DNA from: Corallium rubrum
Taxonomy: Eukaryota; Cnidaria; Anthozoa; Scleralcyonacea; Coralliidae
DNA length: 64,000 bases
Reading direction: 5' to 3'
Assembly (NCBI GenBank): GCA_964035015.1
Contig: OZ036010.1
Location: 10,489,730-10,553,729 of the forward strand
Part shown: positions 29,801 through 35,298 of the stretch, piece after piece
Numbering within the stretch: position 1 is the first letter of the stretch
How the letters are laid out: each line of letters opens with the position of its first letter
Program-made: the position numbers and the translations under genes
Notes under the pieces: generated by a model
What the model was told of the DNA's origin: nothing
Databases searched by the model: none
Seen by the model: the letters and a program-made list of their open reading frames with translations, nothing else

Positions 29801-32800
29801 AGTAACAGTAAGTTACGTTGTTCTGCGAGGTAAGTGTTTGCTCTTATTTCATAGGTATTGAGATTTCTTCATAGTAAAGCAGTGAAGTAAAATCGTTCGC
29901 TAACTATCAACAGCCAATCAGAATGGCGAACGACATTTTTTCACGGTGAAAAAACATCGTTCGTCCAATCAGGACGACGAACAACAAAATTTCACTGGTG
30001 AAAAATTGTCGTACGAGTTATTACGTAATGCAAAAGGAGCAGCGGACGACAAAAGCCGGAGAGGCGAAGATAGATTTCGGAGACGTTTTACACAAATGGC
30101 CGTCGTGTCTGAACTTTGAAATTGAAGCGAAATTGAAGCGTTGTTTCGTTGCATGGACGTAGGCAACAATCAGGTTACTTTATTAAAGGAAAAGAAGAAC
30201 AGAAAACCTTCAAAAGGACACAAACGTATACAGAAAAGCATAATGAAGAAAAGCTGAAAACAGAAACATGGATATAATGATAGCAACAGAGCTCGATTCG
30301 ATCGAGCACTATTTTGTCGGAGTTTCTGGTCAAAGTTCGTGCCAAAAATGAGCCAATATGCGAACCGATTTCTCTACGAGGTAGAATTTGGCCAGTTTTC
30401 ACCGAAAGATATTTCAAAGATAAAATAACGGCAAGAACTATTCATGATTTGGTTTTCAAGATCACAGTAAACTTGTTTATATATCTATAGCTAGCAAAAA
30501 CAAAGTCAACCAAGTAGCATCCTAGCTCTGGCTCTGAGCTAGAAAACAGTCCTCTTAAGTTTCGCTTGTCTTTGTTAAGAAATCTCAATACCTATGACGA
30601 TTTTTACCTAGTACGATTTTTATACACTCGTTGTGAATTATAATAAAACTCACTTGCTCGTACCTCGCTCGTTCGTTTTATGATACTTCACAACTCGTGA
30701 ATAAAAATCGTTCGCAAGCATTTACCATGAAGTAATCTCTATTTTCTATAGACATTTGTTGAGCTCTTTTACTTAAAAACATCTTTGCGTTTTCAAACGG
30801 AAATCAAAACGACGTCATTTTGGGCCGATTGCCGCTCTGAGTGTAATATAATATACCCCAACTCTTTTCCACAATTTCTATAATTAGACTTAGCATATCT
30901 TTTCACTTTTGCGAAAAAATTTTGAAATCCTGCATTTTAGATATTTGCAAACCAGGCTGGATATATTACAGAGGTTATTGCTACCAAAGAGTGGAATCTT
31001 GCCTATCATGGACTAATGCCTCGACTACATGCTTGGCGGTCAGTTCCAATCTGGTAGGTATCGACAGTGCTGAAGAAGACGTCTTTGTTCAACATCTTCA
31101 TCGAGGAAAGTCATCTTGGATTGGACTCAATGATCAAGCTAACGAAGGTGTCTACTTATGGACGGATGGAGGACCAGTGACGTATACACACTGGGGTCCA
31201 GGGATTTCCTCTCCTCCCACCAACGAAGCTGCTGATTGCGTTGACAGTTCTGGACGTAAAAATGCTTATCGCTGGGAAGTATCATCTTGTGACAACTGTC
31301 AAAATTTTACTTGTAAAAAGGGTTGGTGTAATGCCAAAATACGCGTAAAATAATTATACTTTATAAAATTACCTCTACACGATAAATGAGTTATTCTTTT
31401 CTTTTCTTTTCTCCATTTTTTCTTTTTATTTTCCCTCTTGTCTTTGCTACAATTCAAGCCTATAACGTTTTATATATGTTTGATTTTTTCCATTTTTGCC
31501 AAAATCAAAGAAGACACTGGTTAGCAAAGAAAAATGATTGGAATATTTTGTTTTATTTGTTACAGACTATGACGAGTGTGCAAAGGGTACATATGAATGT
31601 GACCTAAATGCTAGGTGTATTAATACAATTGGTTCTTACACCTGTCAATGTCATGATGGATATACTGGAAATGGAGAAACTTGCACTGGTACGTATATTG
31701 TGTTCCATGCTTTTGTAGTTATCAGAAATTTGCAAAAGTACAAAACACAAGTGTAAAGACACTTGTACAAATTTACATCGTGACTGTTAGGAAGAACAAG
31801 CTTCTAATGTCTCGTGTCAAGTACAATAATTGTATTTTTATAAATAATTATTTTACTAAGCATTTTGTGTGCATATGTGTTTGTGTATATATACAAACTA
31901 ATTGATAGTCTTTAATATTGAATCGTAGACATTAATGAATGTTCTCAGTCGACATACTAGGCTCGATTTCCAGCCTTATCTCGACTCGCGGGACTTTACC
32001 CGCGTACGAACGGCTGGACGCGTGAGCGGCTTGTTATGTCTGTGACGTAATGCATAATTTACCCACGGCAAAGATATTTTTGTCATTCATCCAACCAACA
32101 CTATAAACAGAGTCAGTGAACGATAAATCGCAGATGTTTGAAATGGCAGAAATGCAGCAAAGACACGACTTATAATTCAGTGAGCTTCGTGAACTGAAGC
32201 AAGGTGCAATCTTTTCTTATGGACATCTTTAATCAACAATTTATAGGCCCGCCATTTCACGAAGACACAAACGGTCTGAAACGGTATTAATGTAAATAAA
32301 CAGTCTGACATTCACTTGGTTCAGTTAGCTTTTTAGCATCTTCGTCGTTCTATAAATCGTCGCCGAACTCTGCCGTGATTCAAACTGACTTGAGAAACCG
32401 TATCTGATCATCTTCCATGAAAGAAATCAAAGGCGAAATCGCAGTTGTGATTGATTTCGAGTTAATATCAACAAACTATTGACACTGACTGAAATATCAG
32501 TGATTTTCCTGACCTAGTAGGTTAAATGACAAACACATCTAATGGTCACGTTGCAAATCTTCTAAAAAATAATCTTCAAAAGTTTCGAAAATTCGGTCGT
32601 ACGCCTGGGCTGTCACGATGATTTATACAAATGTTCAATAATATATGCCTGCTGAAAATGTGCAGGCGCGTTTGTGATTGGTGGAAATTGACAATGACAA
32701 GCTCACGAGCCCAGCCGTGATTTCGGGGGCGGGTCGCAGCCCGAAATAAGGCTGGAAACCGAGCCTATCGACATACCAGTGTCACTCAAACTCCGATTGC

Positions 32801-35298: not shown

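What the first reader, a model, noticed from the sequence alone, without database searches (positions are those of the whole stretch)
31929..32870. Transposon insertion inside a coding EGF exon, with a perfect 9-bp duplication and an in-frame stop
EGF exon 2 is otherwise intact (123 nt, phases 1-1, six cysteines), but an 810-bp TIR element sits in it with TCGACATAC on both sides. The first three bases of the element are TAG in the reading frame. Because the exon is symmetrical, skipping keeps the gene open into the sushi and SRCR exons. The inverted repeats are still alike, so the insertion may be recent and could be polymorphic.
Basis: partly seen in the sequence, partly recalled or inferred. 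Interest (0 to 1): 0.8.

Follow-up and report, generated by a model that had tools for sequence, protein, structure and literature searches.

The report
Young transposon inside an EGF exon
A short, recently moved DNA transposon sits inside one coding exon of an animal gene for an EGF/Sushi/scavenger-receptor protein and puts a stop codon in it; this is a real but well-known kind of event, of interest mainly because the broken exon could be skipped without losing the rest of the protein.

Summary
An 810-bp element (31958-32767) lies between two perfect copies of TCGACATAC inside a 123-nt, phase 1-1, six-cysteine EGF exon (31929-32870), and its first three bases are an in-frame TAG. The element belongs to a dispersed family: its 26-nt end, up to three mismatches, occurs 663 times in this 474-Mb genome, the reversed control never. 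Of 44 two-ended copies examined, 39 have a perfect 9-bp duplication and 42 at most one mismatch. One copy elsewhere is identical over 810 bp with a different duplication, so the insertion is young. Skipping the exon leaves EGF1, Sushi and SRCR open to the stop codon; including it stops ten residues into EGF2; no credible in-exon splice rescues it. The duplications fit a Mutator-like MITE, but no autonomous partner was found. The searches found no empty allele in the assembly, so polymorphism is untested. Exonic Mutator MITEs with premature stops are already known (FaSt in apricot). Ordinary; modest interest.

The parts
30940..31323 (+). C-type lectin domain coding sequence upstream of the EGF exons (exon boundaries and the junction to EGF1 not modelled)
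   Evidence: Pfam Lectin_C E=4e-18; coordinates
31566..31688 (+). EGF exon 1, 123 nt, phase 1-1, intact
   Evidence: Pfam EGF_3 4e-13 and EGF_CA 5e-12; acceptor/donor scores 7.93/8.39
31929..32870 (+). EGF exon 2, interrupted by the element (123 nt without the element and one duplication copy)
   Evidence: weak acceptor score 0.22, donor 8.39; Pfam EGF_CA 2e-12 for the element-free reading
31949..31957 (+). left copy of the 9-bp target-site duplication TCGACATAC
31958..32767 (+). 810-bp non-autonomous element with inverted ends; first three bases TAG are in frame
   Evidence: longest frame wholly inside it 62 aa
31958..31983 (+). left terminal inverted repeat (26 nt)
32742..32767 (-). right terminal inverted repeat (26 nt, 2 mismatches to the left one, shared by most copies)
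32768..32776 (+). right copy of the 9-bp target-site duplication TCGACATAC
33689..33731 (+). relic of a duplicated EGF exon, first third only, holding the unduplicated target site CAGTCGACATACCAG; 4 differences in 43 positions from exon 2 without the element; an in-frame TAG at its end
33771..33938 (+). Sushi exon, 168 nt, phase 1-1
   Evidence: Pfam Sushi 2e-7
34976..35298 (+). terminal SRCR exon ending in TGA
   Evidence: Pfam SRCR 1.7e-28

Best explanation
A young copy of a non-autonomous, probably Mutator-type (MULE) miniature transposon was pasted, by a transposase supplied in trans (inferred), into EGF exon 2 of a gene with EGF, EGF, Sushi and SRCR exons, duplicating 9 bp (shown). The exon grew from 123 to 942 nt and its reading frame now ends at the element's first three bases (shown). 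A transcript that includes the exon would encode a protein truncated ten residues into EGF2, lacking Sushi and SRCR, and would be a likely target of nonsense-mediated decay (inferred). Because the EGF and Sushi exons are phase 1-1 and exon 2's own acceptor scores weakly, the most likely productive transcript skips exon 2 and makes the protein with one EGF instead of two (inferred, about 0.55). Precise excision of the element with one duplication copy, as reported for another MULE in yeast, would restore the two-EGF form (inferred).
For: Element ends at 663 places, control 0; 39 of 44 two-ended copies with perfect 9-bp duplications, 42 of 44 with at most one mismatch; 0 of 42 with a 10-bp match; identical 810-bp copy with its own duplication GATCAAAGT; eight near-identical copies including this one, mean pairwise difference 0.21%; paralogous unfilled site at 33689; EGF1/EGF2 dN/dS 0.16 over 42 codons, so these EGF exons were under constraint; skip frame open to the stop, included frame stops at residue 52 of the modelled stretch; acceptor scores 7.93 (EGF1), 0.22 (EGF2), 5.25 (Sushi), and the few frame-keeping, stop-free partial routes use sites with negative scores. 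98 MULE transposase domain matches in the genome. Muta1 of Aedes: about 90% of revertants precise in yeast when duplications are present (PMC5225508, passages read).
Against: No RNA evidence. No autonomous element with these ends was found: the end sequence was not seen within about 1.5 kb of the ten best of 98 MULE matches, and longer end-delimited candidates could not be read. The good part of the arms is short for a MULE (26 nt). Whether the gene is expressed is unknown.
Confidence: 0.82

Rival explanations
1. The element acts as an intron (an introner-like event): it is spliced out of the exon, so the protein is unchanged.
For: Introner families often have TIRs or target-site duplications and can recruit splice sites from the duplication (PMC9860276, passages read).
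Against: The element begins TAG and ends CTA and brings no GT...AG at its edges. Listing GT or GC donors (31931-32000) with AG acceptors inside the exon that keep frame without stops gave only two introns, with donor scores -3.58 and -4.69 and acceptor scores -2.04 and -8.59.
Confidence: 0.04
2. The gene, or this isoform, is simply dying: exon 2 is included, transcripts decay, and no functional protein is made. (This shares the insertion itself with the best explanation and differs only in the outcome.)
For: In-frame stop, and a neighbouring exon relic with its own TAG shows that the EGF array has already lost a unit.
Against: CTLD, EGF1, Sushi and SRCR coding stretches are open with clear Pfam matches; the weak exon-2 acceptor and the 942-nt length favour skipping.
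Confidence: 0.3
3. The element is not a MULE derivative but belongs to another superfamily that can give 8-9 bp duplications (for example Merlin; recalled, not from a call).
For: No linked MULE transposase was found; the good part of the arms is short.
Against: 9-bp duplications in 39 of 44 two-ended copies lie in the published MULE range of 8-11 bp, arms 14-500 bp (PMC6446971, passages read); 98 MULE domain matches in the genome. A search for PF12762, a transposase family of the Merlin kind, was tried five times and never answered.
Confidence: 0.15
4. Assembly artefact: the repeat was wrongly joined into the exon.
For: An identical copy exists elsewhere, which could mislead an assembler.
Against: A private perfect 9-bp duplication flanks it, different from that of the identical copy, and a paralogous unfilled site shows the target sequence; a misjoin would not make a duplication.
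Confidence: 0.02

Closest known systems
FaSt (Falling Stone), a non-autonomous Mutator MITE of Prunus, in coding sequence of SFB and ParMDO
   Same: Short element with inverted ends inserted in a coding exon and truncating the protein; for ParMDO a 9-bp duplication and a premature stop are described, and the insertion is present in self-compatible apricots only (PMC5853662 and PMC13359793, passages read)
   Different: Plant host, 349-358 bp; sequences were not compared; loss of function shown genetically there; no skipping of a symmetrical exon in the passages read
Muta1 and other MULEs of the mosquito Aedes aegypti
   Same: Animal MULEs with 8-9 bp duplications and non-autonomous derivatives (PMC5225508, passages read)
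   Different: Transposase shown active there; none linked here; 12 of 14 Muta families have arms over 100 bp
Introners (transposons that make introns)
   Same: Non-autonomous elements in exons, many with TIRs or duplications (PMC9860276, passages read)
   Different: No splice sites at the edges and no credible frame-keeping splice route here
Phase 1-1 exon modules of extracellular proteins (recalled)
   Same: EGF1, EGF2 and Sushi exons are phase 1-1
   Different: Here the symmetry matters as tolerance of a disrupted exon, not as a route of domain gain

Membership tests
Mutator-like element (MULE), non-autonomous | Target-site duplication of 8-11 bp, constant within the family | tested here: met
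   9 bp perfect in 39 of 44 two-ended copies, one mismatch in 3, two in L072 and six in L060
Mutator-like element (MULE), non-autonomous | Terminal inverted repeats (published range 14-500 bp, commonly long) | tested here: met
   26 nt at 92%, 73% out to about 70 nt; shorter than typical (range from PMC6446971 passages)
Mutator-like element (MULE), non-autonomous | Autonomous partner with the same ends coding for a MULE DDE transposase | tested here: inconclusive
MITE | Short, no coding capacity, many copies of similar size and ends | tested here: met
   34 of 44 two-ended copies are 700-900 bp; 663 ends; longest stop-to-stop frame wholly inside the element 62 aa, both strands, frames not scanned against families
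Introner | Removed by splicing so that the host frame is kept | tested here: not met
   No GT-AG at the edges; only two frame-keeping introns, with negative scores; sequence test only, no RNA
EGF domain exon | Six cysteines in EGF spacing, phase 1-1 | tested here: met
   EGF1 by Pfam, element-free EGF2 by Pfam EGF_CA 2e-12

The most novel reading that the evidence does not exclude
The element is still mobile and the site is polymorphic, so that individuals (or cell lineages after precise excision) carry either a two-EGF or a one-EGF form of a lectin/scavenger-receptor type protein: a reversible, frame-safe domain switch made by a transposon.
Probability: 0.12. Interest if true: 0.5.

Novelty: new member of a known kind. 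Interest (0 to 1): 0.22.

Why it matters
It documents a recently active miniature transposon family with 9-bp duplications in an animal genome and gives one clean, testable case of how symmetrical (phase 1-1) exons may shield modular extracellular proteins from an exonic insertion. It does not by itself change a general view; exonic MITE insertions with premature stops are known.

Tried and rejected
Recency from arm similarity was rejected as an argument: the same two arm differences recur in 27 of 34 full-size copies. An intron-like role was tested by sequence and rejected. An empty allele in the assembly was sought with the left flank; 34 of 34 candidates were scored and only the own site matched in full, the rest of the 39 matches being partial. 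A right-flank search was swamped by a second repeat family in the downstream intron, 40 of 4765 candidates scored. An autonomous partner was sought by comparing end positions by eye (100 places listed of 663 and of 173) and by the MULE family without success; one 3,262-bp element with these ends (L056) is the same miniature element with further inserted sequence. Naming the organism was tried through the GFP and COX1 families without result; the host is left unnamed. The first distance table mixed orientations of the elements, so its rows near 50% are wrong; one search replaces it. The sampled copies were drawn from best matches and exact left ends and so lean towards young copies. Loci fetched for this family with no second end found in the stretch: L010, L016, L020, L024, L038, L054, L055, L058, L059, L060, L063, L066, L073; they are not in its count of 42. 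L058 and L060 proved to be 88- and 74-bp two-ended forms and are in the 44; L057 covers the place of L038, and L054-L056 those of L010, L020 and L024.

Full report
What is there. The window is part of a 14.8-Mb contig of a 474-Mb, 312-contig genome. The host was not identified. On the + strand lie, in order, a Kazal-type stretch (Kazal_2 5e-8) with a weak H-type-lectin-like stretch after it, a C-type lectin domain (4e-18), EGF1 (EGF_3 4e-13), EGF2 (interrupted), Sushi (2e-7) and a terminal SRCR exon (1.7e-28) ending in TGA at 35296-35298. The H-type lectin match (E=0.015) is below the Pfam cut-off. Whether the Kazal, H-lectin-like and C-type lectin stretches belong to the same transcript was not tested; the modelled part is EGF1 to SRCR.

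The insertion. EGF exon 2 runs from 31929 to 32870. The element occupies 31958-32767, exactly 810 bp, between two perfect copies of TCGACATAC. Its 26-nt arms pair with two mismatches. Without the element and one duplication copy the exon is 123 nt, phase 1-1, with six cysteines, and matches Pfam EGF_CA at 2e-12. As assembled, translation reads DINECSQSTY and then the TAG that is the element's own start. The longest stop-to-stop frame wholly inside the element is 62 aa, far too short for a transposase.

The family. The left end, with up to three mismatches, occurs 335 times forward and 328 times reverse, and the reversed control not at all (this pattern also catches right ends, which differ at two positions); the right end occurs exactly 86+87 times. 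The full element query returned 43 matches from 40 scored of 667 first-look candidates, so copy counts are lower bounds. Of 44 distinct two-ended copies in the fetched loci (44-3500 bp long), 39 have a perfect 9-bp duplication, three have one mismatch (L009, L025, L057), L072 has two and the 74-bp form L060 six. None of the 42 copies has a 10-bp match. Duplications show no strong sequence preference. The 88-bp form L058 has a perfect duplication.

Age. A copy on another contig (L002) is identical over all 810 bp but has its own duplication, GATCAAAGT. Eight of 34 full-size copies, this one included, differ from each other by 0.21% on average and at most 0.62%; the other 26 lie 1.4-7.4% from this copy. 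So this is a recent insertion of a recently active subfamily; no date is given, since no rate is known for this host. Arm similarity does not show recency, because the two arm differences are shared by 27 of 34 copies. The sampling favoured copies with an exact left end, which leans towards young ones.

The unfilled site. The left-flank search found no allele without the element in the assembly. In the same gene, however, 33689-33731 is a relic of a duplicated EGF exon, differing from the element-free exon 2 at 4 of 43 positions, with a single TCGACATAC. It is a paralogous pre-insertion site; it breaks off with a TAG and cannot replace EGF2.

Consequences. EGF1, exon 2 and Sushi are each a multiple of three and phase 1-1; joining EGF1 to Sushi and SRCR is open for 204 residues to the final stop, whereas inclusion stops at residue 52 of the modelled stretch. 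The listing of partial-inclusion or intron-like routes that keep the frame and avoid stops gives one 3'-part exon, one 5'-part exon and two introns, all with negative scores. Skipping is thus the most likely productive route, but it is a prediction. The EGF exons were constrained (dN/dS 0.16 between EGF1 and element-free EGF2 over 42 codons; this cannot tell which of the two bore the constraint).

Classification. A constant 9-bp duplication, inverted ends and the lack of coding capacity point to a MULE-type MITE. The published ranges are duplications of 8-11 bp and arms of 14-500 bp (PMC6446971, passages). The genome has 98 listed MULE domain matches, so a source of transposase is plausible, but none was linked to these ends (ten of the 98 looked at), and the longer candidates could not be read. 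Membership is therefore likely, not proven.

Known precedent. FaSt, a Mutator MITE, sits in coding sequence of apricot SFB and ParMDO; in ParMDO the 9-bp duplication and the premature stop are described, with loss of self-incompatibility (PMC5853662, PMC13359793, passages). Muta1 of Aedes gave about 90% precise revertants in yeast when duplications were present (PMC5225508, passages), so reversion is conceivable here. The listings (listing only, 65 showing 10 of 31) named no paper that, by title or abstract start, treats this element or gene; this is not proof that none exists.

Verdict. A sound observation of an ordinary kind of event: a young, probably MULE-type miniature transposon in a coding exon. 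The tolerable-exon angle is attractive but needs RNA and population data.

Noticed in passing
33689-33731: Relic of a third EGF exon: an AG acceptor and about the first 43 nt remain, then TAG and a GTATGT donor-like motif. It differs from exon 2 at 4 of 43 positions, while the longer match that includes upstream intron is only 78%. It could be a poison or alternative end exon.
   Followed up: partly
32991-33566: The intron after exon 2 holds other dispersed repeats, with a 29-nt near-perfect palindrome (33020-33081); many copies elsewhere, mostly at 78-93%.
   Followed up: partly
35569-36558: A 36-bp tandem repeat, 27 copies, lies 270 bp behind the SRCR stop codon; its unit is a multiple of three and long stretches are open (CDQDILQKLTFH repeated).
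   Followed up: no
G000:C129:15711-80241: Several whole and broken COX1 copies on one contig (10 of the 11 family matches), the best a 539-aa frame without stops under the tool's code. It may be an organelle contig of another organism (a dinoflagellate symbiont is one guess); letters could not be read.
   Followed up: no
L058:201-288 and L060: Very short two-ended forms (88 and 74 bp) of the same transposon family, little more than the two ends; similar close end pairs appear by eye at several other places in the lists.
   Followed up: partly
10695-11037: Long GACA microsatellite, about 86 units, 97% uniform.
   Followed up: no
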